The position numbers were made by a program, and so were the translations under genes. 64,000 nt of DNA from positions 132,958,476 to 133,022,475 of the forward strand of contig NC_092806.1 in the NCBI RefSeq assembly GCF_040954645.1. Reading direction: 5' to 3'. This document shows, piece by piece, positions 11,728 through 41,591 of this stretch. Position 1 is the stretch's first letter. Each line of letters begins with the position of its first letter. The notes beneath the pieces are model-generated. The model made no database searches. It worked only from the letters and a program-made list of their open reading frames with translations, and was not told where the DNA came from. This DNA comes from Diabrotica undecimpunctata (Eukaryota; Arthropoda; Insecta; Coleoptera; Chrysomelidae).

Positions 11728-12334
11728 GTAAGTTAGAATTCTTATATAAAATATGTATTTAAAAATTGTATACAAAGACTAATATTTATAATATAGTTTT
11801 AAATACCAAATTAGGTATTATCTTTCATGTTAGTTGACATGTTAATGCAATAAGACAATATTGCGAAAGACAATTCTTATCATTGGCCCTGGACTTCTGC
11901 TCTTATGGCAGAAAGATGAGTGAGCTTTCTGGAACACCTAAAGGTATGAATAGATTCAGGTCAGGCATCCAAAAAACTTTGAAAAACAGATGAAGACTTA
12001 AAACAAATCTTCAAGACAATCTCTTTTTGAAATGGTTATCAATGCATCAATCTGGCGCTATTTAGCAACCAATGTATAACAGTGGATTCATACTGACTCA
12101 GGTATAGGCACGTCTTATCTTAACGCAATCTATACAATTAGAAATTTGTCAGGAAGAACTAAAAGATTATACTACCTAATCATATTTAATATTATTTATA
12201 TAGGGAAGCAAAAAAGAGAAAAATCTTGCCTAAACTGTACAAATTAATAGAAATGTAAAACAATACTGTCTCTTCTGGGGGTTAACTGTAGTAAGTCTTC
12301 AACAGTCGTAAGTCTTCCATGTGAAATATAGCTA
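11728..12334. other. Intron sequence, no recognisable feature
   Basis: No coding or terminal-repeat signal seen. Confidence 0.5.
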
Positions 12335-13605
12335 ATTGTGGTGTTTCACCAAAAATGGAGAAAAGACAAAATCCAATAACAAAATACGAGTTGTAACAGT
12401 AGAAATTAATTTTGAAACGAAAACTCCATTATAAATACAGAAAAGAGATATAGAAAAACTTGCCCTACCTCTGATATTTTGAAGTGAAACTTCATATGAC
12501 AAATGGGAAATCAGAATTACCAACACAAAGAATTTTATGATTAATTGAAAGTAAGAAAAAGGAAAAAACGATAATAAAAAAAATTGCTTATGAAGTATTA
12601 GGAACAGAGAACAACGACAAAAAACACCACGAACCACCATGTATAATAGAAAACGCAAAAGAAATTATATAAGAAAAAAGAAAATATATAAGAAATGGCT
12701 AACAAATAAAACATCTAGCAATAGAGTAACATATCAACGGAAAAACGGAGAAGTACGCAATCAAATAAAAGAACCAAAAAACAATTTCTGGGAACAAAAA
12801 TGTGTCCAAGTTGAAAATTTATTTGGTGGTTCTCAGACTACGGAAGCATGGAGAACTATCACTAATCTAAAGAAAAACACCCATAATTCCTTAAGCAACT
12901 TAATTCCAATAGAAAAGTCAGAAAATCACTATAAAAATTTACTCCAAGAGTCCAGATTGAAATATATGGGAGAGGAATACAGAAAGGATAGACACCAAAT
13001 AGTAACAATAATACTACTAACAACAAGGTCCCTACTACGATAATTAAAATGAAAAACGGGTGATTTCCAGGACCTGGCAATATATCTTATTTAAAACAGG
13101 AGGTTTACTCCTAATAGAACGAATAACTTTTCTAATGGATCAATGGTGCCAACAAATTAAAGTACCATCTAAATGGAAAACCGCTCATCAAGTGTCCATC
13201 TTTAAAAAGGGTAATGGAAAAGATCCTAATTGCTACGTGTCCTACCTACTTTCGGGAGATTGTTGGGAAAGATAATGAATGGAAAGGAAAAATACAAGAT
13301 GATGTAGGGCATAACTTGTTTATACTCCAACAATTAATAGAAAAAAGAATAGCGGTTGGTACAGAAGTACATCTAGCCTTCATCGACCTAGAAAAAACGT
13401 ATGATACAGTTCCAAGTCTTAAATTGTGGCAAATTTTACAACAACTCGGCATTAGTCTATACCTTTTAGGAAAAATCACAGAAGTATACAGGGATAACAC
13501 TACTTACCTAAAAATCGGAAATAGACTATCCAAGATAATAAAAGTAACTAAAGGACTAAGACAAGGATGCAGTACGTCACCCTTACTGTTTAATTTATTA
13601 GGCCT
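12335..13605 (+). mobile_element. RTE-like retrotransposon fragment (linker and RT), truncated after RT motif B
   Basis: Plus-strand pieces, in changing frames: KKIAYEVLGTENN (about 12580), KNNFWEQKC (about 12780), MDQWCQQIKVPSKWKTAHQ (about 13137), LQQLIEKRIAVGTEVHLAF (13327), DLEKTYDT and LRQGCSTSPLLFN (about 13555-13600). The last block should lead to YADD, but the sequence switches at about 13606 to a minus-strand element. Stops and frameshifts are frequent in the first half. Confidence 0.75.
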
Positions 13606-14070
13606 TAGTTATTTGGCCTGGCTATTGGTCTCCTTGCTTTACCTCTTCTGGTTCTTCTTGGTTGCTATCTAAATTATTTTGGGTGTTCAGTAGATCATCG
13701 AAATATTGCTTTAATCTGTCTAAGATGTGATCATTGTCATGCAGTACGAGTTCTTCGTTGTCTCTTATCTGCTTTGGTGTTTGTAGAAACTTTTCGGTTC
13801 TTAGATTCTTCAGGGTTTTGAAGAATAACTTTTAATTAGTGTGGTAGTCTTTTTCTATCTTGTTTCCAAATTCTTCCCAACTTGTCCTTTTCGCTGCTAG
13901 TACCATTTCAATGACTTTGATTATCTGTTATTTTTATTTTTGGTACGTCTATTTAATTTTTCTTAAATTTTTCCGTAAGTTCAACCTCCTGGCCATTTAG
14001 ACCTCTAACATTCCACGTTGCTAATGTCTATCCTTTGGGATTGGGAACTACTCTGTTATTATGGCCGTGT
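13606..14070 (-). mobile_element. RTE-like endonuclease start plus linker, internally deleted
   Basis: On the minus strand the endonuclease start (RGLNGQEVELTEKFKKN, about 14010-13960) is followed almost at once by the post-endonuclease linker (LGRIWKQD near 13870, then LFFKTLKNL and similar pieces). Most of the endonuclease is missing. It abuts the plus-strand RT fragment head-on. Confidence 0.55.
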
Positions 14071-14452
14071 CATTGAACTCTTTTTCTTGCATGTGGTTTT
14101 TAATATTTACTGTTTATGTTCTCGCTCGTTGCTGGCTGCATTTTTTCAAACACTTATTTGAATTGCAGTATCTCAGATAACAAAAGCCATATTCCTCCAA
14201 ATTGCATTAGGATCCCTTTTCGTATTTCAATTCATGTTTTCCTTTTTTACTTTTATTTCTGCACAGAATATATGTTCTTTGTCGACTTACAACATCCATC
14301 ATAAAAATCTAAAACAAACAAAAATTAAACAGTTACTATAAACCATTTTGAAATCTCTTGCTTGATTAAATTAATTATATCTTACTACTTGAAATTATAT
14401 CTTACTTTTACTTTTTATGAATTTTGGTATTTTAAAGATGTTTATGTTTTAG

Positions 14453-14824
14453 GAAGTCTTTCCTTCGCTGCATTAGACTCCGTTCCTCCAAGTCTGGTAG
14501 ACAACGCTGCTATAGTGGGAACGCTATCCCTGGTAGTTGCAGGTCTCTTCCTTCTTGATATGGGCGGCCCAAAGAAACGAACGGCTAGATCTCAACAACC
14601 CAAACAAAAAAAGAACGTTGTAGTTCCTCGAGGCAGTATTACAAAACAGGTTATTGAGATAGAAAGAGATAAAGACAAAGAGCAGAAAGGTCAGAAGGAG
14701 AGTACAAAACCTGAGGAGATACAATTTAAAAAGGTAGAAAAGGGTGTAAAAATTGAAAAGGACAAAAATGGAACTAACGGAATGACTGCTATTGAAATGC
14801 AAAATACAAATAGTTCTAATAAAG
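14453..14824 (+). CDS. Four-TM membrane protein gene, exon c
   Basis: This exon lies between TTTTAG at 14452 and GTATAA at 14825. It is 372 bases long and phase 1 on both sides, continuing exon b (VMG|SLSFAALDS). It completes one helix, then has a short PPSLVDN loop and a last helix (AAIVGTLSLVVAGLFLLDMGG). Immediately after the membrane comes a strongly basic stretch (GPKKRTARSQQPKQKKN), then about 60 residues of mixed-charge, Lys/Glu-rich sequence, probably cytoplasmic. An open frame runs upstream of the acceptor, but only the spliced reading makes a coherent membrane protein. Confidence 0.85.
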
Positions 14825-16196
14825 GTATAATCTCTACGTTAGTTTATGTAAATTTTTTCTTTTTAATAGTAAGACGAAGATGGCTGCTAATACAGCATTT
14901 GGTACTTAAGCTGATGAAATTTTAAGATCATCTTGTGTAAACTGGTTAATATGGTGGTAGTACACCATATGCTTTTATTGATTATATACTTTAGATTTTT
15001 ATGGGGTTATGATAAGTTAAGAATTCAAGATAGTCACTTTGCTTTATCAAAACAAACACTAGATCCCGCTACAGATCCTACTTATACATATTAAGCTTAA
15101 TTTCGTGGCATAAATCGTAAATCTTCATTTTTTAAATAAACTTATATTTTTACTTCATAATAGATACAAATACGGTTCCCATTAAAGGTGTGCCATTTTA
15201 CCAAAAATAGAAGTAGAAAAAAAAGTAGAAGACAGACATAATGAGTTCTTATGGGGTGGGGGCGGCGAAACTCGGCCGGCCAAATGCGGCCCTGCTCAGA
15301 TAAATTGTCGTCCACTGCAAGAAAAATTACTATAGCCTCTTTTCTGTTGTCTATAATATGATCAATAATATAATATGATTCAGTTCTTATGCTTAACTAA
15401 AGTTGTCAATTATCGGAAGACATTTAACCAATAGGAATAAAACCACGTGATTACAATTTTTTACACGTCTTGCTCTGATGGTACGTCAGATTATATTGCA
15501 CATGTTGTTATAGTCAAGAGGTTTGTTCTTGTTCTGTGATGAAGTGTACCATGTGTCGCAATGACGTTTAAAAAATTACCAGAAGCATACCTAGAAAGTC
15601 TTTTGTTAGAGAGTGAAGATGAGTATCTTAATATAATAATGTATGTGTATATACCTGTACTTTATCACTTAAGATTCTTTATCTATAATCTATACTTCAC
15701 AAATTAAAACAAAAATGACAAGCAATAGTAAAAATTAAAAATAATGCATTACGCCTGACTGAGAATTTATTACTTTATAAATTCAACTAACTACCACTAA
15801 AAACAAAAAATGTACAGGCCAAACCTTCAAAATGCTTACGTCCAATAAATTCTTGGTGAATCATAAGGTTGTACCTTTTTACAAAGTGTGTCAAATCAAA
15901 TCTAAAAATAAAAAGGAAGTACTTAAAAATCAATTAGTAAAAAACCAGTTCCTCCTTTACACTAACGAATTAAAATCATAGTATAAGTACTCCTGGTGGG
16001 ATGGTATTATTAGAACCGCCTATATTATTGATTTCGTTTATTACTGCCAAGCCAGTAATTTAGGACTGACATGAATTTATTATTTTAAACCGATAACAGT
16101 CGAAAGACTTTTTTCTGTCACACGATCGATCGGTGGTCGCGCGTTAGTTTATAGTATATAGTATTTTTATTTGCTTTCTATGTTAAAAATATCTAT
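14825..16196. other. Intron sequence with a GC-rich patch, otherwise unassigned
   Basis: A short GC-rich patch (about 15250-15295) stands out from its AT-rich surroundings. Near 15563 a short frame begins MTFKKLPEAYLESLL, faintly like the start of piggyBac transposases, but nothing follows it. No gene is called. Confidence 0.4.
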
Positions 16197-18917
16197 GAGG
16201 AGCAGACTTTCTATATGCATTTTGTCCATTTTTTCAAATTTTCAACCAAAGATGGCATCGCAAACTATATGTATAGAGCCACCATTTTGTGTCACGAAAG
16301 ACGTTCCAAATGAATTCTGTTGTCTGCAAATTAAATGAAAAAAATACCTTGGACTTTCTATGTGCTGTGTGTCCATTGATGGTAGACGAACTAAACGAAG
16401 TTTGTCCGTGCGCTATGGACTAATTGCGATTTGTTTGTCGTTGGTGGTCGTTGTCGTTGTATAGTTGGTGTCTATACTGTTAAGTTTATTTTATGTGCGT
16501 TTGTTTTTCCGATTTTCAACAAAACAATATAAAATAATGGATGTAGTTGTGACAGGAGATCATGTAGTTGGTGATACGGACCGCGGTAGCAGAAAAAGAA
16601 AAAGACATCTAACTAAAGAGCGTAAAAGCAATGTTAGGTATGCTTTAATGACTTATAGGTTACTTGTGTATTTTGGTATTGTTTACACAATATCATCTTA
16701 TGTTGACTATCAGTTCTTATGTTGTTGCCGTTAATATTTTAATATCATTCTCTTTTCAAGGCATTCAAAACATTATCCTAATTTGGAATATTTTGTTGAT
16801 TTTTTCTGTAATCACCCTAATCGAAAAGATTTTTGCTGTAATGAAGTATCCGAAGACGATATTAGGACAATTAGAAGTATGTTTTATGAAACAATAAACA
16901 AAAATGTACAGGATAATTATTTGGGACATTTTATGGATGTTGAAAAACCAGATAGAAGTCGGAACCGAAAAATAGAAAGAAAATCCCACAATTTCTTTAT
17001 AAGATATCATGTAAGTTTTACTTACAATAAAATCTTATTTAGCATTAAAAGTTTTTGTTTAGATATTTTAAAAACACGGTAAAAAACACAATATGTGTTT
17101 TTCACCGAAAGTAATATTCTTTATTTTAGGTTTGGAAGAATGGAAAAAAAAAATTACATTTCCCAGAAATTATTCTTATCCATATTTAGTGTCAGTCAGA
17201 GTCGCGTAAATACTATTGCTCGAAAAATGCAATCTGGCAGTGGTATTGTTGAGAACCGTGGAGGGGACAAACGGTCTTTCAAGAATGTTGAAAAATTTGA
17301 AGCTATTAAAAAATTTATAGCCAGTTTGAAAGGACATGAAAGTCATTACGGGCGTGCTAAATCTAGGCGCATTTATCTATCATCTGAAAATAATATCACT
17401 ATTTTATGGAATCTGTACAATCAAAGTACTGCTGAGAATTTGAAAGTAAATTACAAGTATTTTAGTAGGAGCTTTAATAGTCATTTTAATATTGCATTTG
17501 GAAGCCCTGCTACTGACGTATGTGGCTTTTGTGTCAGGACCCAAACTTCTATTAGCCTTTGTAAAGACAAAACTAAGGAAAAACCAGAACACACTGTTTC
17601 CTACTGTTTTGAGCTTCAGCAGGTTCGAGTCTTACCGAAAGTGCCCATTCAAGATTCATTTTACGCCCAGCAGTTATCTTTTTATTGTTTTTGTGTAACC
17701 GACGTGGATATTAAAAAGCCAGTTTTCTACACCTGGATGGAACATCAAGCAAAAAGGGGATCTGCTGAAACAAGTTCTGCTCTATGTGATTTTTTTAATA
17801 AATCTGAATTTGGATCAGGTATAAAACAATTAAGACTATTCGCAGATGGTTGTGTGGAGCAGAATAAAAATGCACACATGATGCATATGCTCATGCTATG
17901 GTTATACAGAAATGCCCCACAAAATATTAAATCTGTGGTACTTATTTTTCCGGTACGCAGACATTCATATTTGCCAGCGGACCGTGTTTTCGGGCAAATA
18001 GAAAAAGTTACACGATCCTATAGTACAATAAAAACCCCTACACAATATTATGACATTTACTCCAAGAAGGGAGAATTTAAACAACTTGGTAGAGACTGGA
18101 CTGTTTATGATCTAAAAACTGCGTTAACCTGTTTAAAAAAAATTGAAGGAATCAGTGCAGCCAAACGAATTATTATTAAGAGATCACAAAACAACAACAA
18201 TATTTTGCTTAAGACCGAACTGTTCTACAGAAATGATGATCCATATTCCAAACATTATTGAAACGTGGAAAGAAGCTTTCGACTTTACACTTACCTGCTG
18301 TAGAACTCCAAAACGAAATTAAACCAAAAAAACTCCAGAGCCTCTCGAAACTATTAGTGGAACTGTCAGGGGTGAATTGGGTCAACGATCCTAAGCTAAC
18401 ATGGTTACAACCAATTCTTTCTGATACTGGTGAGCAAAATGACAATCAAGTTAACCTTGCTGAAACTGAGGATGATGACGTTATCGAAGGAGCTGAGTGC
18501 TGTGATTGCAATGATGACCATGGGGACCTTTATGATATGTAAAATGCCATTATTGTTCCATTTATTTTTAAACATTATTTTGTATTTAAAAATAAAATAC
18601 TATTTTTATGAAGCTACTTGAGTTTTTTTACATCGTTACTACCAAACGTCTGTCATACCGCTTGGTGTAGACAATCAAAATGCGTTTCGTCCAAGGATGA
18701 CAATCTAAATGCAGTTTGTCCAACAGTTTTTTCAAGTTTTTTGGGATATTATCAATACTAGATTTTTAGCATATAGGTATAATATTTGAATGATTATTCA
18801 TCCATGTTTTAGGTATATCAGTTTTTCGTTCAATTTCTTGCCAAACGCATAGCAGTTTTTCTCTATTTGCTAAAATTACAAAAAATGGACAACATGCATA
18901 TAGAAAGTCTGCTCCTC
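16197..18917 (+). mobile_element. TIR DNA transposon, DGCxxQNKN transposase family, copy 1 (nearly intact)
   Basis: The 38-bp terminal inverted repeats at 16197-16234 and 18880-18917 differ at one position. They begin gaggagcagactttc. The flanks are ctat and ttat, possibly a 4-bp duplication with one change. Inside, the 14-mer atgcNNttYgtcca occurs in both TIRs and twice more at 18680-18693 and 18709-18722, consistent with transposase binding sites. The element carries one spliced transposase gene. It sits in the intron between exons c and d of the membrane-protein gene. Confidence 0.88.
16537..18541 (+). pseudogene. Transposase of the DGCxxQNKN family (copy 1), three exons, two frameshifts
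   Basis: Exon 1 (16537-16637) encodes a basic, NLS-like start ending KERKSNV. The donor GTATGC and acceptor TTTCAAG splice it to exon 2 (16761-17010), which holds a Cys/His-rich segment (CNHPNRKDFCC) and FYETINKNVQDN. Exon 3 starts at 17130 and carries GGDKRS, KGHESHYGRAKS, FGSPATDVCGFC, TWMEHQAKRGSAE, the DGCVEQNKN block (about 17844) and HSYLPADRVFGQIE (about 17965-18006). The two Asp and the Glu in these last blocks are candidates for a DDE-like triad. The frame slips in the A run near 17141 and again at about 18258, after which the tail continues (KRGKKLSTLHL) to a stop at 18541. I associate this family with uncharacterised insect proteins (DUF7869-like), but that is from memory. Two slips in about 590 codons mean recent activity. 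Confidence 0.82.
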
Positions 18918-19029
18918 TTATTAAAAGAACATAAATTTAAATTAAAACTCAAGACATACACAAAAACGGAACAAACGCTAAAATAAAAGATAATAGATAC
19001 AAAGAAACTTAACAAACACTAAAATATAA

Positions 19030-22000
19030 ACACAGTAGGATGTAATGTTTAGAATTCTTTACGACTCGTACTCCTGCTCTTCACTTCTCCTTATGCATTA
19101 AAAGCATAATGTACGTTGTGGTGGACGTATGCTCCTTGAAGATGGGGTTCCTGCAAGTCAAGAGGTATGCTGCGTGAACCTTTTTTTTTTCCTTATTGGG
19201 CAATACTGACATCGAGGTTTCTGCGCATTTAGAAAAGGTTGATTTATTAGCGAGATGGTGGGCTTTTTTCCTATAACGTTGCTTATCTTTTGGCGTAATG
19301 GAATATGCACAGATGTGATTCTCTTTTTTCTACATGGGGCATCGAAAGACTCCGAGACAAGTCAGCAATATACTTTCTTCTTTGCATAAAAATTTGGGTA
19401 TTACTTTTATAAATCATTTGTGAGTTTATTGTAGCTTTATTATATTCAGTAATACGGTCGTCTGCTTTGAGCCTATTTAGGTACTATGTCTATCCCTCGT
19501 TTTGTGTCATTATAGAAGGAAATTATGTATGGTTTATATACATCATGTGTTTCAGGGGCAATTGAATAATCGTCATGGTAGGTGGAAAGAAGAAAAACGT
19601 ACTTACTTATATTTCTTTGGAACATAGGATGTCGGGATACATTTATTAGAGTCTTTCCTGTAAGAAAACATGCTATTACACACAGGGCGATTTTTTACTT
19701 GCACTAGGTAATTCCGCTGGTATGTCGAGCTTATTTTTGTGTGCCTACAACTGTTAATTTATGGCTAATACTTTAGAGATCGTTTCACCGTGAAGTAATT
19801 TTCCATGATGACATTTCGTTCAGATTTATTTAGAGGCTGGATAAGACCTTTTACTACACTGGGGGAATCCTTTGGCAAATTGAATGGACCTTCGGGCTGC
19901 TTTACTGCATAAATCTCTATATTAGACGTATAACAAGATTTGGAATGATGAAAAGATCCCTAATGATTGGAAAACCGGGATTATATGCCCAATCTATAAA
20001 AAAGGGGATAAACTTAAATGCGAAAATTATCGCGGCAAAACCCTCTTGTGCACGGCGTACAAAATTTTTACTTACATACTAAACAAACGACTCCAACAAC
20101 TAACTGAAAATATTGTCGGGGAATATCAAACCGGTTTCCGACAAGGAAGATCTACAACTGACCAACTATTCACAGTGAAACAAATCTTAAACAAATCGTG
20201 GGAATACGACATTGACGTCCACACCATATTCATAAATTTCAAACAAGCCTACGACTCAATTGATAGGAACAAGTTATATCAAATATTGTAGAGCTTTAAT
20301 ACACCCCAAAAGACATACTCCCATAAAAACAACAATGGATTCGTCAATAGCAACTGTCAGAGTCCAAAATGAGCTCACTGAAAACTTTACGATAGCCCAA
20401 GGATTAAAGCAAGGAGACGGGCTGGCACCGACACTATTCAACCTGACCTTGGAATATGTGATAAGACAGCTGAATATAGGAAGAAGTAATCTCCTAACAA
20501 ATAAATCAATACAGATTGCCGCCTATGCCGATGATATCAGCCTCATATCTCGCAGAACAGAAGAGGCGGCAGAAATATATTCACAATTAAAATCAAAGGC
20601 AAAAGAGACCGGACTAGAAATAAATATTCAAAAGACAAAAAAGTTAACACAGACAAGAGCTAAGGGAAACAGACGCACAGTTGAGGAGGATATTGAAACA
20701 GTAGAAAGTTTCACATATTTAGGAGTTGCATTAAACACGGATGGAACAGAAGAACCAGAAATCCAAAGAAGAATAGTAAAAGGAAACAAAGCTTATTTTT
20801 CACTCCAAAAACACACACTGGAGATCGAAAATCAGGGTCAACAAAACTATTATCAGACCAATAGTATGTTATGCATGCGAGACATGGGTGATGACAGAAG
20901 AGACAAAAAGAAAACTGGAAGTCTTCGAAAGAAAAGTCCTAAGAAAGATATTTGGACCTATTAACGAAAACGGAATATCCAGGTATAACCATGAACTCTA
21001 CCAACTGTTCAAAGAGACATCGATCTCAGAATTCGTTAAACTTCAGAGACTTCGCTGGGCTGGTCATGTAATAAGAATGGAGACAGAAAGATTGCCGAAA
21101 AGAGCCCTAGATAGTAAAATGCAGGGCGCAAGACCGAAAGGAAGGCCACGGAAAAGATGGGACGATGAAGTGGCAGCGGACGCGCAAAATTTGCTAGACG
21201 TGAGAACTTGGAGAAGATCGGCGCGGGACCGACAAGGTTGGAGGCATAGTTTGGAGGAGGCCAAGGACCGATTTGGGCTGTAGCGCCATTGGAGAGAGAG
21301 AGAGACGTATAATAGATTTTTGCATCTGTCAAGGAATAAATGTTAATTCTGAATTTTGCCGGTTTGTTAGCAATGTATTGTCTAAACTGGCAAATTCCTC
21401 GAAAAGCTTCTAACGTCTCGTCAATTATTAATATATTGTGCCAAAGTGTAAAACTCTGAGCACTTTTGGTCAAAACTGTCAAACATCGTACGTATTGGTG
21501 CCAGGTTATCAAATTCTGCTCTATCCGTTTTGGTACTGATATCGTCGAACCTTATGGCACTTAGAAAAGTGTTGAATCGCCTTTTAGAAATCACTGGAGC
21601 AACGAATTCGGGTGCGGTTCCCTCACCGGCCCAGAAATCGTAAGTATTGAGATGATGACTTGTTTAAACATCTGTCATAGATAAAATTCCAATGTAAGCA
21701 TTTATTTCATCAAAAACTGTGGGCTGGCAATTTCTCTCTCGCTGACAAACTGGTCGCATAAGCTCTAACTTCTGGTCTGTGTATTTTACTATGTCTTCAA
21801 TTACGGTATTTGGAAAAACACAATTTCCAACAATCTAAAATTGTTTTTGAACCTTCAGAGGCTAAATTAACCCCAGGTAGCTTGGTTATTATGTTAGCTT
21901 GGGATGTTTTCCCTCTAATTACATGGAGTTTGTGTTTATACCACTCTAGGTGTTTCTTTTTTTTTTCAACAAATATCGGTTCGGCAGATATTTGGTTAAA

Positions 22001-22200
22001 AAAGGACTGACATTCTTGTTCATCGCCACTCTCTTTACACTGCTCATCGTCCACTTCAACTGCCACAGTATCAAGAGCATCGTCAATATTGTCGTCAGAG
22101 TCTACAGCACTTCCTCATCGGATAGAATTTCTGCGTATCATAACGTACAAAGCAGTCAAAGCATAAGCGTACAAATAACCACAAAGCACTTCTTGCAGAA
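19030..22200 (-). mobile_element. piggyBac-family element, decayed, split by an RTE-like insertion
   Basis: The minus-strand transposase reads in order: acidic N-terminus (VEVDDEQCKESGDEQE, about 22065), KLELMRPVC, WAGEGTAPEFVAP, RFDDISTKTDRAEF, AFRGICQFRQYIANKPAKF (about 21400), DAKIYYT, then after the insertion [13 protein letters not shown] (19920 downward), RNVIMENYFT, SYVPKKYK and a C-terminal Cys-rich RCQYCPIRKKKKVH (about 19200). The order and motifs match piggyBac DDD transposases. Multiple stops and frameshifts occur. TTAA termini were not located. Confidence 0.85.
19934..21302 (+). mobile_element. 5'-truncated RTE-like retrotransposon inserted into piggyBac, (GA)n tail, 10-bp TSD
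   Basis: The 10-mer agacgtataa lies at 19924-19933 and 21303-21312. The element encodes RT blocks ([67 protein letters not shown]) and the C-terminal domain (LRWAGHVIRMETE, KGRPRKRWDDEV). It ends in a (GA)n run at 21292-21302. One short deletion or frameshift lies near 20285 and another at about 20885. Removing it restores the piggyBac frame ([14 protein letters not shown]). Confidence 0.92.
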
Positions 22201-22799
22201 CTGTATAGATACCTGATACAAAAAGACTCTGTCACAATACTAGAAAATTATGCTTGAAAATTTTGACCTACATTTTTAGCTCCGTCGTTAGACTTTATTT
22301 AACAGAAAAGATGACATGCTTGTTCGCGTGTTAGATTAATACTAGAAAATTCAATTCTACTCATATTTAGTTACGCTGTCGGGTACTATTGGACATGCGC
22401 ATTACTACACTCTTGCTCGGGGCACTTACGAGTGGAAAGCTATGTTGTCAAATTGTTCATCAAGTTTGCACGGAAAAGAATAAAATGTTAGATTTTCTCA
22501 ACAGCACGATGAATCTCGGGTTAAACAACTGGTAATCACACTAATGATAAAGAACTGTATTAGTGGACGAGAACTATAACAGAATTAAAGTAAAGACGAT
22601 CTATATTAACCATCTACATAAAAACAGAAGCCACTTATAGGAAAACAGCCTGTTTTGGTATCGACAAAAATCTCAAAATGCACAAAACCGATGAGTAGTG
22701 GTAGTGACAGTGATAACTGTGGAGACAAACAAAAAGGCGGATAGTTTTTTTGAAACAATTTTTTTAACTAATAAGATATGAAACACGTTACAATTTCAT

Positions 22800-23640
22800 T
22801 TTTTTTATTGCATAGTTAATACATCTTCGACTAGTCTGGAGTGGTAACTTGCTTTGCCATCACAATAACTGCGTGTTTAGGTATGAATCCAATCATTTGT
22901 TCGAAATATTCCTCAAACTCATCTCTGTTCATCTCTTCGTGATAATCACAGGTTTTCTTTGATTCAAACAAAAGTAAACCATCCGCGAGAAAACCATTTA
23001 CACTACCCATATGGGTAACTATGAGTCGTCGACCCTTACTGGTTGGTTCCACTGGACCATTTGAATGTCTTTGTAGAAACGCTTTTTGACCTGTTTTTAC
23101 ATTTTTACACTTCAAAACTCTTTCTACAGAATGCCTTTCATTAATTCACGTTTCATCTAAATAATATATTTTATTTATTTCGGTCCTGTGTTAATTTGTC
23201 GTAGGAACTCTCATCTCAAACATACTATTTCTTCGGTTTTGGCGTTTGAAGTTTAATTCATGTAAAACTTTCCAAAGTTTGATTCTAATTATCATGGCCA
23301 TATCAGGATCATCAATTAAACTTTGTAACTTTATCTAAAGTTGGTATTTGCTTGTTAAAAAAACGAATGGCCAATCCTACGAATGGCATTTTTAAAACAA
23401 TCATCTAGCTGGACTTTTAATAATTTTGGTCTTCCTCGTTTCGGTTTAGATGAAACTATACCAGCCAATTTTTCTGTTTTGAATACTTTATAATATATAG
23501 TTTCCTCTCATTCCACTGCAGACATTTCAACAATACGTATTAGAAAGATTCTGTTGCCGAAAATAATTGTAAACATTTAGTATCACTCTTTTCATTACGC
23601 TATAAATGGTTCATCTTTAATTTTTTGATTAGTCTATAAT
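22800..23640 (-). pseudogene. Tc1/mariner-superfamily (DDE_3-type) transposase remnant
   Basis: Minus strand: KPKRGRPKLLKVQLDD (about 23450), then KIYYLDET (about 23165), then a run of about 95 residues with SKGRRLIVTHMGSVNGFLADG, LFESKKTCDYHEEMN and MIGFIPKHAVIVMAK. Insect IS630/Tc1-type DDE transposases have YLDETW, GKGxRLIivHaGs, DYHxEMN and VIVmDNA at these places. The second-Asp motif is degraded and stops are present. Confidence 0.7.
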
Positions 23641-24187
23641 CCCAAGTTCATTCCACATTCAATAAAATTACTCACTATTAACTATCACAAAAATCACACT
23701 ATAATAATATCAAATCTCTTTAGTCGCTTACATTGACTGAAGGAAACTATTCTGATTATAATAAACAAACCCCAATAAATTAATGTAATTCTTTGATGTA
23801 CATCCATGACCTGTTTACTTATCGTATAATTCCATTATTGTAAAAGTAGCAGGTAGAAGATGTTTAGGGTATGCTGGTAATATGCATGATTGTTTATCTA
23901 AAAAGATGGCAAAAAAGAAGTTAAGGCTGAAATGTTCCCTTTGTAGGGTAAGTAAAGGTACTAAAATATGCATACCAAATTAGTTTCATTTCTAAGAAGT
24001 TACTCTATGTTGATTTTCAAATATGATATAGAAGGTTCGATTTAGCCTTGATATAAGAGTCCTGTATGTGTATATACCATAGCCAAAAAAGGTCTGTTTG
24101 TTGGTGGCAGAGAGCTGATATAGATACGGCCTAAAAAGATTTTTCTTTGCTTGTTGATTGTATTAAAAATTGGTTATAATGATTTAG
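23641..24187. other. Intron sequence, no recognisable feature
   Basis: AT-rich, ending in the acceptor of exon d. Confidence 0.5.
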
Positions 24188-28380: not shown

Positions 28381-30859
28381 CAGTGATTCCCAACCTGGGG
28401 GCGATCGCCACCCGGGGGGCGATTTGAGATATTCAGAAAAAGAGAAAAAAAATACAATACTTTCGATCGGATATCCATAGGATAATAAAAAGTAAATATA
28501 TGTATACCAATGCAGGTAATAATAACAAACATCTCGTCTAGTCACAGAGAGCTATGAATCATAATACAATTTAATTCTATACATTATCGTTATAATTATA
28601 CATTATAACGAATTCTGCATTTTCCTTTGATCGAGCTTTCGTATTATGCGATCATCCGCACAAAAGAGAAAGAGAGAGAGAAGTGGGATAAGAATTATGA
28701 GAAGTAGGTACCGCTCCTGCCGATCTGACTAAAACAAAAAGCTAACGGCCGAGGTTGTCATCGCTTCAAATTTGGAGTCTTTCGTTCCCGAGGTTTGTAT
28801 TGTGGTATATAAAGTTGTTTTGTTTCAACTGACAGTCATTGTGTTCAGTTAGTTATTACTTTAATAAAAATACTGTGATTTATTTGTAAAACTGTTAAGT
28901 CTGTCTTTCAATTCGGACATAACCACTTATCTTATCGAACACGAGACGTCACAATATTAGAATCATTATTAGATAGTGTTTGATAGAATTGCGAGATAGT
29001 GTTTTTATTCTTTGCCTTCTCAATAAGAAGTAATTAATTACTTTTTTGTTTTGTTCTCAAAATGTCAGCACCTAAAAAAAAGTGCCGGCAGTACTCAACG
29101 GAGTATTTGAAATATGGATTCATTGAATTGCCAGGAAATAAGAATCTACCATTGTGTCTCATTTGTGCAAAATCTTTGTCAAACGAAGCCATGAAGCCGT
29201 CTCGGCTTATGGATCACTTGAAGAGGATTCATCCAGAGAAGTCAGACAGACCCGTCCAATATTTTGGGTGAGTAAAAGTCTTTTGTTTGTAGGATGTAAT
29301 TTTTCCATGTACAGTTACAATCATTGAATAGTTTACAAACTTACGTATCTAGGAGCCTATTTTTTAAATTTTTACCCCGTTTAAACGCACCTTTTACGTC
29401 AAAAGTATTACAATGTAAAAATTAAAGTGTAAACTATTTGGTGATCGTAACTGTACCTAGGTATCAACATATTATAATTATTTTTACTTTCTATTACCAA
29501 AAGTCAGAGTTACCTCATTATTTGTGTGAGATAAAACAAATAATAAGAAAACCTTTTTTAAACTTTATTACCATTACTTATAATAATTAAAGTGAATGTG
29601 TATTTCTTTCGTTTACAGGAGCTCAAGGCAAAGTATGAAAGGCGAGTTACTGTTGGGTCATTGATTGCAAAAGCTACCAAGAAAAACGACAAGGGTTTAC
29701 TTGCTTCCTACAAAGTATCATTGTATCAATAGCAAAAAGTGCCAAGCCGCACACAATTGGAGAAGAACTCATCCTCCCAGCTGTCAAAGAGATAGTTGAT
29801 ACTATGTTGGGACCCAGCCAGGCCAGCCAAGTAACAGATGCAGTTCCTCTCAGCAATAGTACTGTCTCCAGAAGGATTTATAAAATGGGAGCGAATGTCG
29901 AAGATGTTCTCTGGAACAAATTGAAAAGCAGAGAGTTTACTGTGCAACTTGACAAGAGTACCCTGAGTGACATCACAGCTTTACTGCTGCCATATGTCCG
30001 ATTCATTGACGACAATGGAGAAATGGCCGAGGAAATGCTGTTTGTTAGAAGTCTGATTACTGATACAAAAGGATCTTCCATATTTGAGGGCGTTAAGAGA
30101 TTTTTTGAGGAAAAAGAGATTCCCTTATTAAATATTATCGCCTGTGCTACTGACGGTGCAGCAGCAATGACAGGACGTCATCAGGGATTTATTGCACATC
30201 TGAAACAAGCAGTACCTGGAATTTTGTAGGGTAGGAGGTGGGAGGAGGATTTTTGTAGGAGTAAGAGGTTGCACGATTCTCTTCGACTTGTCATAGATGC
30301 GGTAAATAAAATTAAAGCAAAACCAAAGAATGATCGAATATTTCTTACACTTTGTGAAGAAAATGATGAGATATTTAATACATGGCTACTACATACGGAA
30401 GTCCGCTGGCTTTCTAAAGGCAATTGCTTAAGGCGGTTCTTCAGTCTCATGGATATTGTTATTGAATTTCTTAATACTACTGACCCCACACTGAGTACAG
30501 AACTACAAGAGAAGCGAAATGACATCGCTTACTTATCAGATATTTTTCAAAAATTAAATGAAATGAATCTGCAACTACAGGGGAAGAACATAAATATGGC
30601 CAAAAAGGTAGTCGGAGCATTCATTGACAAACTATCTATTTTTGAAGAAAATATGCAGAGAAGAGATCTGACCAAATTCCCCAACTTGAAATCTTCTTGT
30701 GGTGATTCTGAGTATCTTCAAACATACTGCCTCCACCTTCAAAAACTGAAAGAAGATGTGCAGTCTCGATAATGGGGGGGGGGGGGGGCGATTATAGTAT
30801 TCATAACTGGTGAAACCTGTCTAAGGGGACGATCATGGGGAAAAGGTTGGGAACCACTG
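28381..30859 (+). mobile_element. hAT-superfamily transposon with 8-bp TSD, internally damaged
   Basis: Ends are cagtgattcccaacc on the left and ggttgggaaccactg on the right, which are 15-base inverted repeats with one mismatch. The 8-mer atatagtg flanks it at 28373-28380 and 30860-30867. It contains a BED-type transposase remnant. A run of about 15 G at 30774-30788 lies inside the right end. The length, 2479 bp, is short for an autonomous hAT because the transposase is deleted internally and at its C-terminus. Confidence 0.93.
29062..30771 (+). pseudogene. hAT transposase (BED zinc finger, ZBED5/SCAND3-like), broken
   Basis: hAT transposases bind their ends through an N-terminal BED finger and cut with an RNase-H-like fold. 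The start encodes a BED finger (YGFIELPGNKNLPLCLIC, then LMDHLKRIHPEK). A probable intron follows (donor GTGAGT about 29271, acceptor TTTACAG about 29619), though the junction is now out of frame. Then come KATKKNDKGLLASYK, SNSTVSRRIYKMG, DVLWNKLKSREFTVQLDKST (the first catalytic Asp region) and IIACATDGAAAMTG (second Asp region). After VPGIL there is a stop and a gap, then LHTEVRWLSKGNCLRRFF. The sequence ends at about 30771 without the C-terminal dimerisation region. Frameshifts and deletions make it non-functional. Confidence 0.85.
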
Positions 30860-32140: not shown

Positions 32141-33822
32141 ATTCCAGGAAAAATAAAGAAAAAGCTTTTATTTAATATTACGGGTAAACCAGCATGGACA
32201 GAACATTTTACGGAAAAGTTTGAAGGAGATTGGAGAGAGACGACCCCTGACATACCATTAGACCAAGCAGACAACAGAGAAAAGACTCCACCAACAATAG
32301 CCGAGATTAGAGCAGCAGTAGAAAAATTAAAGAACAATAAAGCACCGGGATCGGATCAAATAGCATCGGAGTTACTAAAGGAAGGAGGAGACGCACTACA
32401 AAAAACAATACATGAATTGATAACAAAGATATGGTCGAATAAACAGCTACCAACGGAGTGGAATAGCGGTATTATTGTACCACTACATAAAAAAGGAAAT
32501 CAGTTAGAATGTGGAAACTACCGTGGAATCACGCTGCTGAATGCAGCATACAAAATAATGTCCAATGTCATTTATGAAAGACTTAGACCACACGCTGAAA
32601 AAATAGTTGGCAAATACCAAAGTGGCTTCTGTAGACAGAAGTCAACAATAGACCAGATATTTGTTCTGCGACAGATCCTCGAAAAAACAATTGAATATAA
32701 CATCGACACCCATCATCTCTTCATAGACTTTGAAAGCGCATATGACAATATAAACCGAGAATTCTTAATAAAAGCAATGAAAGAATTTAATATACCAACA
32801 CAACTAATAGAACTGATAAAAGAATCTCTAAAAGTAGAAAGTAGAATCCGGATACAAAATGAATTAACGGAAACAATAGATGAGAAAAAGGGACTACGCC
32901 AGGGAGACGCCCTATCATGCATCTTGTTCAACATCGTGCTCGAGAAAATACTGAGGGACACAACAGTCAATACACGAGGAACAATCATTAATAAAAGCGG
33001 GCAAATACTAGCATTTGCAGATGATGTTGACATAATCGCAAGATCAAGAAGAGAAATGATAGAGGCATACAACCAAATAGAACGAGCTGCACAAAATAGT
33101 GGTCTTAAAATCAATCAGACCAAAACAAAATATATGCAGGTAAGAAAAAACGCAGAAATAAGGCAGCCACAAAATATAACAATAGGAGAATGCAACATAG
33201 AGGAGGTAAAAAACTTTATATACTTGGGATCCCTAGTCACGTCTGATAATAACGTTACGGAGGAAGTGAAGAGGCGAATATTTATTGCAAATAAATGTTA
33301 CCATGGCTTAATTAGACACCTAAGATCAGATAACGTCGCAAGAAAGACAAAATGCCAAATATATAAAACCCTAATAAGACCGGTACTCACATATGGCTCA
33401 GAAACCTGGACACTTACTAAAAGAGAGGAAACGTTGTTAGCCACCTTCGAAAGAAAAATCTTGCGACACATATATAAGGGCACAAAAAAAAAAACGGAAT
33501 ATGGCGAAGACGATACAACTCTGAACTATACAAAATATACCAGGATCCGGATATTATAACATTCATCAAAATAGGACGGCTGCGTTGGATAGGACATGTA
33601 GAAAGAATGGAAGAAGGCGAAATACCAAACAAAATATTCAAACAGATGCCAGTAGGAAAAAGAACAAGAGGAAGACCGAAACTGAGATACTGAGAACAAA
33701 TAGAAAATGATATAACAACCTTAAAAATAAAAAACTGGAGAAAAAAAGCACGAAACAGATCGGAATGGAGAAAAATCCTAGAACAGGCCAAGACCCAAAA
33801 AGGGTTGTCGAGCCAGTGATGA
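32141..33822 (+). pseudogene. RTE-like reverse transcriptase with C-terminal domain, one frameshift
   Basis: The frame is open from 32141 to 33559. It covers NKAPGSDQIASELLKEG, GNYRGITLLNAAYK, SGFCRQKSTIDQIF, HLFIDFESAYD, KGLRQGDALSCILFN and the catalytic block LAFADDVDIIA (FADD in place of the usual YADD), then FIYLGSLVT and LIRPVLTYGSETWTL. The frame slips in the A run at about 33487, after which the C-terminal domain continues (GRLRWIGHVERMEE, KRTRGRPKLRY) with one stop where Trp is expected (about 33693). The first domain (endonuclease) is missing because of 5' truncation. Only two lesions suggest recent insertion. Confidence 0.87.
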
Positions 33823-38924: not shown

Positions 38925-41591
38925 ATTGAGTAGCTGAGATGCAAAACTCGCTCGTTACCAAAAATTAAAAATTTGAGATAGTTATGGATTCTGACACGTA
39001 TGGCTGCCCTTTACAATAGTCTCATCTCAAAGTGTAGCAAAACGTGCTCGTTTCCGTTGATTTTCACTATATAAAATAAGAGTTGGTAGCAAAACTAGTT
39101 CGTTCTATGTAACAGTTGGTTGCAAAACTAGCTCGTTGCATATTCTGCAGCAAAACTCGCCCGTACCTTGTTTTGACGAATCTAACCTAACATTTCATGC
39201 TTGTATTCGCTTTGTTACAAACATTAAAAAGTTTACTGTTTAAATAAAAGTAATACAGGTTTTGTTTTAATTAGTGTTTTTAACAGTGTTAATAGTAATG
39301 GATCCTAAACCGAAGAAAACAAGAGTAGTTAAAGATAAATGGAAGAGGAATATTGAGAAACGAAATAGGTAGGTTTATTTGAGGTTATGTTGAGATAAAT
39401 AATTTTTGCTTTAATTATTCAGACAGTTCATTAATTTTATTTTTATTTATTCCAGGCATACAGCAAAAGATTTCCCCTCATTATTAACATGCACTCATTC
39501 AAAAACATTTTATTGTTCAAAACTTAAACTCCAAGATGTACGGCGTTTCCATCAATCTTTTTATGACACACCAAATAAGGTGGACCAAGATAATTTTATT
39601 TTAAAACACACGAAGCAACTAGCTCCAATAAAGAATAGAAAACGAAAAAATTATGAAAGACTGGATAACAATGTAGAGAGAAAAAGCTGTATATCCATCA
39701 AATATTTACAGAGTTTACAGAGAGAGTACAGGTTTGCTCCAAAGCTTTTCTTACAATTTTGGGTATTTCTAAATACCGCGTTCAAAATATTGGCAAGAGG
39801 TTTTTTTTTAGAATTCCAGTCTCCAAGAGAACGAAGGGGAGGTGACAAAAAAACTGAACAATTTAAAGGTAAAAAAGAGGCTGTTTCAAATTTCTTAAAA
39901 TCACTACAGTTTGTGGAGTCCCATTATACAAGGGATAAAAGCACCAGACACTATATGCCAAGTGATTGTACAGCAAAAAAACTCTGGAAACAGTACAACC
40001 AATCAGTAAATGACAAGTTGTTACTTCCTGTATATTTTCAACTATTATTTTAATATCAGTTTCAAGACTCCAGCAACAGATGCTTGTTCGCAGTGCATTC
40101 GTCTGAGATGCCAAATAAAAACGATGTCTGCAGGACACAGGAAGGTTGAAGTTATGGCTGAACATGCGGTTCATAAAATGAAAGCAAAAACTTTTTATTT
40201 TCCATGCTGAAAAAAGACGACGGGCCTTCTGTACTGAAACTTTCTTTTGATTGTCAAAAGAACCTTGTGTTGCCACGTGTTCCAGACCAGGCTGCCTATT
40301 ATAGCAGGCAACTGTACCTCTACAATTTTACTATATGTGAGGGAAATTCTACTAGTGTTCAAAATCCTGGTTCGGTGTATGCTTATACATGGTGTGAACA
40401 CCAAAGATATAAAGGGTCTAATGAAATCGCTTCGATTTTATATCACCATCTTAGAAATAAGGACCTTTCAGAAATAAAGGAAATAATGATTTTCTGCGAT
40501 GGCTGTCCCGGCCAAAATAAAAACATAACTGTGATTGGCATGTTGTGCAAATTTTTATATGAAACGTTAAGTTGCAAAAAAATTACTGTTACTTATCCTG
40601 TGGTTGGACACTCCTTTATTCCTCCCGATAGGGTATTCGGGAGGATTGAACAAAAAATTAGAAAAAAGGACACAATAATACAACCTAGTGAATATTGGAA
40701 TTTGTTTTCTCAATTTAGCACAGTTAGAAAAGTTGGGACCCAGGTAGCCGTTCAATACTAGAAAAGTGCAGTTACTACAGTTGTAAAACCTCCAGGCCAA
40801 CTCCACTTCAAATTTGCTGCTTCCAAAAGAATAATCATAGAAAAAACTAATCAAAACAATGTGACTATGCAGGGTGAAATTAATTAGAGGTGCAATCTAG
40901 GCGTCCAGAAACCAATATTAAAAAAGGGAAAGAAAATTAATCAGATTATTCCAGCTCTCCTTCCAAACAACGTCATGGTTGCAAAAGAAAAAATTAAAGA
41001 TGTGGAAAAACTCCTTAACACTCATTTTGGTGAGAACTGGAGAACCTACGATAATTTGCAGTTCTATGTCCCCATTGTGGATAATAATTTTGAAGGAGTA
41101 GAAGAAAACGATGGGGAAGAGCACATTGAAATAATAGAGGAAGCTAATGGGCTCTCTATTTAACATTTTTTTGGCCTTAATAATAATAAAATTATTAGCA
41201 TTACGTTTTTTTTAATAAATAATATTGTTTTGTTCAAGTTCTATAAATAAAAATATTTCAAAAACTGTCTACTTTCCTATTTTCTATTTGGTTGGGTTTC
41301 AACTATTACGATGTATAACTTGTTTGTTCCTAGGTGCTTCGCAGCAAAAGTGTTTCAATGCAATGCTTCGCTGCAAAACTCGTTCGTTCTAACTTTTAAT
41401 CTAATATTTTTCTATTAAAATGTTGCTTCTGATTTTTTAATTCTTAGTTTCTTTATCGAGACCAGGGTAATGTTTCACAAGCAAAAAATTCATTTTACTT
41501 AAGTTAATTAGTCAGACACAATAAATTTTTTACATGTCCTGAAAAACTCGTTTAAGGGTAACGAGCGAGTTTTGCATCTCAGCTACTCAAT
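38925..41591 (+). mobile_element. TIR DNA transposon, DGCxxQNKN transposase family, copy 2
   Basis: Perfect 35-bp inverted repeats at 38925-38959 and 41557-41591, starting attgagtagctgagatg. Flanking taaa at 38921-38924 and 41592-41595 is a likely 4-bp duplication. A 16-mer of type gcaaaactcgYtcgtt is repeated inside both ends: 38941, 39037, 39089, 39122 and 39150 on the left, and 41373 plus the inverted TIR copy on the right. The transposase inside is homologous to copy 1 but more decayed. Confidence 0.9.
39298..41163 (+). pseudogene. Transposase of the DGCxxQNKN family (copy 2), decayed
   Basis: Exon 1 (39298-39368, MDPKPKKTRVV..., very basic) is spliced by GTAGGT to an acceptor TTCCAG at 39455. 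The intron falls at the same place as in copy 1, inside an Arg codon before a His. Exon 2 has CTHSKTFYCSKLKLQDVRRF, then FYDTPNKVDQDNFI, GGDKKTEQF, ESHYTRDKSTRHYMPS and KKLWKQYNQS. After a frameshift at about 40030 comes FKTPATDACSQCIRLR, and after another, YTWCEHQRYKGSNEIAS, IFCDGCPGQNKN (about 40492) and GHSFIPPDRVFGRIEQ (about 40607-40654). The tail KKGKKINQIIPALLP corresponds to KRGKKLST in copy 1. At least three frameshifts and two stops occur. The paired Cys near CTHSKTFYC and TDACSQC may bind zinc. Confidence 0.82.

What the first reader, a model, noticed from the sequence alone, without database searches (positions are those of the whole stretch)
16197..18917. Nearly intact transposon of a little-described TIR family (DGCxxQNKN transposase)
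Seen: 38-bp TIRs with one mismatch, a three-exon transposase with only two frameshifts, and candidate catalytic blocks DGCxxQNKN and HSxxPxDRVFGxIE. The protein does not match the piggyBac, mariner, hAT, PIF or Transib motifs I know. Insect genomes contain many uncharacterised proteins of this kind, which I link to DUF7869 from memory. Inference: this is an RNase-H-fold DDE-type transposase and the element moved recently.
Basis: partly seen in the sequence, partly recalled or inferred. Interest (0 to 1): 0.75.

Follow-up and report, generated by a model that had tools for sequence, protein, structure and literature searches.

The report
Decayed copy of a beetle jumping gene
This stretch of a cucumber-beetle genome is a broken copy of a cut-and-paste jumping gene of a known general kind, probably Sola type; sister copies suggest that the family jumped very recently and that its protein, filed only as 'unknown function', is the enzyme that moves it.

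The parts
16197..18917 (+). whole transposon copy, 2,721 bp, non-autonomous by decay
   Evidence: 29 sister loci begin and end with the same TIR sequence
16197..16242 (+). left terminal inverted repeat (first 38 bases differ from the right one at one base; 43 of 46 alike)
18872..18917 (-). right terminal inverted repeat
16193..16196 (.). left remnant of the 4-bp target-site duplication (CTAT)
   Evidence: flanks; 4-bp TSD length set by 26 of 29 sister copies
18918..18921 (.). right remnant of the 4-bp target-site duplication (TTAT; 3 of 4 bases agree)
   Evidence: flanks
16537..16637 (+). transposase exon 1
   Evidence: tblastn with P0001, splice letters
16761..17010 (+). transposase exon 2
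17130..18542 (+). transposase exon 3 (two frameshifts, near 17.14 and 18.24 kb; in-frame 69-bp gap at 17574/17575; stop codon 18540-18542)
17569..18258 (+). catalytic core piece that was folded: RNase H topology; the D302 position is Glu here, D380 and D425 kept
16221..16407 (+). left subterminal TNTGTCC motifs (16221, 16368, 16401), possible transposase-binding repeats
   Evidence: T.BGTCC: 5 in the 540 bp of ends, 2 in 2,181 bp of middle; role is inference
38928..41588 (+). second, divergent DUF7869-type element with its own TIRs (first 32 bases identical) and AATT/AATT flanks

Best explanation
A dead copy of a cut-and-paste DNA transposon family of Diabrotica, most likely of the Sola superfamily (Sola2 group). 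SHOWN: the family has elements of about 2.75 kb with TIRs starting GAGGAGCAGAC, one three-exon gene for a 614-aa protein, and 4-bp, mostly AWWT, target duplications. INFERRED: the protein binds the TIRs and subterminal repeats, pairs the ends, cuts them with an RNase-H two-metal site (Asp302, Asp380, Asp425; D77D44D), and joins them to a target with a 4-bp stagger whose repair makes the duplication. SHOWN: one sister copy has a complete open frame, and gene-dead copies have multiplied. INFERRED: working copies moved the dead ones in trans.
Against: No Sola transposase sequence could be compared. Foldseek gave no PDB match at E 0.001 or below, so the fold link rests on VIA-align and topology. 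Whether the third acid is D425 or E432 is not settled by coordinates. No transposition was shown. The Sola2 elements described in PMC3627910 are amoebozoan, with 12-13- or 21-bp TIRs and an 888-aa transposase in DFa-2. Named relatives are insects only.
Confidence: 0.85

Rival explanations
1. DUF7869 elements are a DDD superfamily of their own that has independently settled on 4-bp AT-rich targets, and are not Sola.
For: No Sola sequence was compared; named relatives are all insects; no relatives were confirmed in prokaryotic or viral contigs, though Sola is reported from bacteria.
Against: TSD length and AWWT motif, the DDD triad, element size and TIRs all agree with the published descriptions of Sola/Sola2. 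The prokaryote and virus scans used only two and one peptide patterns.
Confidence: 0.13
2. The gene is captured cargo in a TIR element moved by an unrelated transposase.
For: TIR pairs with more than 2 mismatches or over 10 kb apart were not examined.
Against: All 29 facing TIR pairs found hold the gene; the protein has an integrase-like core; a 32%-identical relative in the same window sits in its own, different TIRs with a 4-bp TSD.
Confidence: 0.01
3. The window copy itself is nearly intact and recently mobile.
For: TIRs almost identical; reading frame mostly preserved.
Against: First catalytic Asp changed, two conserved glycines replaced, 69-bp gap, two frameshifts, imperfect TSD, nearest sister 96.9%.
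Confidence: 0.03

Closest known systems
Sola superfamily, Sola2 group (Bao et al. 2009, recalled, not held; described in PMC10741241 and PMC3627910, passages seen)
   Same: DDD transposase, 4-bp TSD, AT-rich AWWT target (23 of 26 exact TSDs here), TIRs, size within 2-9 kb
   Different: Relationship by protein sequence not tested. The Sola2 elements described in PMC3627910 have 12-13- or 21-bp TIRs and an 888-aa transposase in DFa-2; here the TIRs run to about 38-46 bp and the protein to 614 aa
Pfam PF25273 DUF7869
   Same: 66 of 67 members of alignment A4 match it at E 0.1 or better; the window core scores 28.7 bits against a cut-off of 26
   Different: The Pfam entry states no function, and the stretches matched here start after the first catalytic Asp
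Tc1/mariner (SETMAR transposase domain, Mos1)
   Different: 4-bp TSD, mostly AWWT, instead of TA (TA recalled); no sequence match to solved structures at E 1 or below
Retroviral integrases (HIV, SIV, PFV)
   Different: a fold relationship only; 4-12% identity in the rows shown
piggyBac
   Same: DDD triad and 4-bp TSD (recalled)
   Different: 0 of 26 exact TSDs are TTAA

Membership tests
Sola superfamily (Sola2) | 4-bp target-site duplication | tested here: met
   26 of 29 copies exact at 4 bp, 0 of 29 at 3 or 5 bp; definition from PMC10741241 passage
Sola superfamily (Sola2) | AT-rich AWWT target (Sola2) | tested here: met
   23 of 26 exact TSDs are AWWT, the other 3 are ACTT or AGTT; definition from PMC3627910 passage
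Sola superfamily (Sola2) | DDD catalytic triad | tested here: met
   D302, D380 and D425 in 51 of 51 rows, E432 in 48 of 51; that D425 and not E432 is catalytic is inferred from helix position and invariance
Sola superfamily (Sola2) | protein sequence similarity to Sola transposases | not testable with these tools
   no Sola protein or Repbase library at hand; original paper not held
Sola superfamily (Sola2) | terminal sequence typical of Sola2 | not testable with these tools
   no published Sola2 terminus appeared in the passages seen
DDE/D RNase-H transposase/integrase superfamily | RNase H fold with acids on strand 1, after strand 4, and on the last helix | tested here: met
   order of secondary structure; integrase and mariner matches
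Pfam DUF7869 (PF25273) | score above the curated cut-off | tested here: met
   27.1 and 28.7 bits against 26; P0001 33.5
piggyBac | TTAA target duplication (recalled) | tested here: not met
   0 of 26 exact TSDs
Tc1/mariner | TA target duplication (recalled) | tested here: not met
   26 of 29 copies have 4-bp TSDs
hAT, P, MULE and other families with 8-9-bp TSDs (lengths recalled) | 8-9-bp TSD | tested here: not met
   4 of 29 match at 8 bp, 0 of 29 at 9; the 4 are loci with ATATATAT on both sides (L032, L036, L045, L061)

The most novel reading that the evidence does not exclude
DUF7869 proteins are the transposases of an insect-rich superfamily separate from Sola, with its own DD44D core and AWWT targeting, of which Diabrotica holds a lineage that is still jumping.
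Probability: 0.13. Interest if true: 0.6.

Novelty: new member of a known kind. Interest (0 to 1): 0.35.

Why it matters
It gives a likely function to a Pfam family of unknown function that is annotated in insects as 'uncharacterized' or 'DUF7869 domain-containing' protein (named hits are from beetles, bugs, moths and butterflies and a stick insect), so such entries can be recognised as transposon genes. It also shows a DNA transposon family in a crop-pest beetle that moved very recently and has at least one copy with a complete open frame.

Tried and rejected
Cargo gene: rejected, all 29 facing TIR pairs found hold the gene. piggyBac and Tc1/mariner: rejected on TSDs. Relatives in prokaryotic and viral contigs: none confirmed (115 and 23 pattern stretches, none a relative), but only two and one peptide patterns, so weak. 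Sequence matches to solved structures: none at E 1 or below. Foldseek against the PDB: no match at E 0.001 or below for either model; its best rows (MutS-beta, acetyl-CoA carboxylase, NurA, HCMV terminase nuclease, and for the core also Mu transposase and TnsB) are weak. Viral fold library: one match at E 8.8e-4 to a MutS-like protein with TM 0.20, not taken as meaningful. DUF7869 in the paper library: 0 papers. The motif search QNKN showed nothing relevant among the 20 of 60 papers listed. The original Sola paper is not held. Passages of nine further papers were looked at and not used: PMC4455052, PMC5199201, PMC10294476, PMC9976928, PMC11071193, PMC9783078, PMC2836005 (no mention of Sola), PMC6875170, PMC8982398. 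Rfam on 12000-24000: nothing at gathering score. Genome-wide count of DUF7869 loci and copies of the second element: not obtained, because the genome search machine did not answer.

Dropped or uncertain rows: L044, L055, L058, L059, L060, L064 and L065 (7 of 36 fetched loci) lack one recognisable end and are not in the TSD count. L062 was counted as a mismatch; its right TIR carries two extra bases, and read past these its TSD is also ATAT (row). The identity table and the residue table use 23 copies of 2.4-3.05 kb (window included).

Full report
WHAT IS THERE. The window holds a 2,721-bp element at 16197-18917. Its two ends are inverted repeats that agree at 37 of 38 bases and 43 of 46. A 22-base TIR word with up to 3 mismatches matches the 64-kb window only at these ends (shuffles: mean 0.00). 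Between them lies one gene on the + strand. Comparison with P0001, an annotated 614-aa protein of Diabrotica undecimpunctata, gives exons 16537-16637, 16761-17010 and 17130-18542 with GT...AG introns. The longest open piece matches Pfam DUF7869 just above its cut-off.

WHICH GENOME. The host genome G000 is unnamed, 1.74 Gb. Its contig C10 is 81,904,310 bases and C4 is 163,134,084 bases, exactly the contig lengths listed for the D. undecimpunctata proteins P0001 and P0111. Copy L031 on C10, spliced, equals P0001 letter for letter. The species name is an inference from these lengths.

COPIES AND CARGO TEST. The DNA search counted 152 matching pieces; counts are lower bounds. I fetched 36 stretches that they mark; all 36 give transposase hits and their gapped identity to the window copy is 90.3-95.6%. 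The TIR word has 76 matches with up to 2 mismatches in the genome and 0 for the reversed control. They form 29 facing pairs within 10 kb: the window and 28 of the fetched loci, all with the gene. The shortest pair is 1,948 bp, so no gene-less miniature copies were seen; 18 TIR matches stay unpaired and were not examined apart from those in fetched loci.

TARGET SITES. Of 36 fetched loci, 29 have both ends recognisable. 26 of these 29 have identical 4-bp flanks: ATAT 10, AATT 6, AAAT 4, ATTT 3, ACTT 2, AGTT 1. None has identical 3-mers or 5-mers at the ends; 5 match at 6 bp and 4 at 8 bp, all in AT repeats by the rows. 4-mers taken 5 to 59 bases further out match in 1 to 5 of 29. The window copy has CTAT and TTAT.

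STATE OF THE WINDOW COPY. It has two frameshifts, a one-codon gap in exon 1, and a 69-bp in-frame gap. Of 36 loci, 34 cover that place; 33 keep it and L066 lacks an overlapping stretch. Among 23 full-length copies the window is the only one with Glu at 302, Glu at 384 and Arg at 418; outside these, L055 also reads Arg at 418. Its nearest sister is L031 at 96.9% over ungapped columns. It is an old copy whose enzyme would be dead (inference from the lesions).

RECENT ACTIVITY OF THE FAMILY. L049 (C9) and L050 (C6) differ at 1 of 2,774 bases, with different flanks and different TSDs, AATT and ATAT. Both give the same broken gene with the same number of stops, so they were presumably moved by transposase from another copy. 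L031 has a perfect AAAT duplication and a complete open frame. Whether it is active was not tested.

WHAT IT IS CALLED. Sola transposons are described as encoding a DDD transposase with 4-bp TSDs, mostly 2-9 kb long (PMC10741241, passages), and Sola2-type elements as having AWWT TSDs (PMC3627910, passages). This family meets these features. Similarity to a Sola protein was not testable; the founding paper is not held, and a search of the paper library for DUF7869 gave 0 papers. Hence: it works like a Sola transposon with high confidence, and is a Sola2 member with moderate confidence (about 0.8).

RELATIVES. Three searches listed 68 of 68, 120 of 193 and 120 of 137 hits. A second element of the kind lies in the same window at 38928-41588, with a broken protein 32% identical to P0001, its own TIRs (first 32 bases identical) and AATT on both sides. 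Both elements start GAGnAGCnGA, and both carry a short motif repeated near their ends.

Noticed in passing
window 38928-41588: A second, divergent DUF7869-type transposon relic, 2,661 bp, TIRs identical over the first 32 bases, AATT on both sides, gene broken by stops and frameshifts. Copy number in the genome not obtained.
   Followed up: partly
window 38941-39165 and 41344-41575: The second element has repeated GCAAAACT-like motifs near both ends: GCAAAA 9 times in 540 bp of ends against 6 in 2,121 bp of middle; possibly transposase-binding sites.
   Followed up: partly
L049 and L050: Two copies on different contigs differ at 1 base yet carry the same broken gene: a gene-dead lineage (with L040, L053 and others in the tree) has multiplied, presumably in trans.
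   Followed up: partly
L056 and L066: Two copies are split by inserts of about 3.5 and 5.5 kb (one search places), probably other mobile elements nested inside them; the inserts were not identified.
   Followed up: no
window 18938-19034: A 41-bp tandem repeat of 2.3 copies starts about 20 bases right of the element.
   Followed up: no
window 30509-30769 and 32561-32788: Weak hits that may be parts of a non-LTR retrotransposon (P0065 hit; RT-like stretch); the name is a guess from the letters.
   Followed up: no
P0061 and P0064: Two annotated beetle proteins related to the query carry other domains (P0061 PF25273 with PF13843; P0064 PF03184); perhaps nested elements fused by gene prediction.
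   Followed up: no
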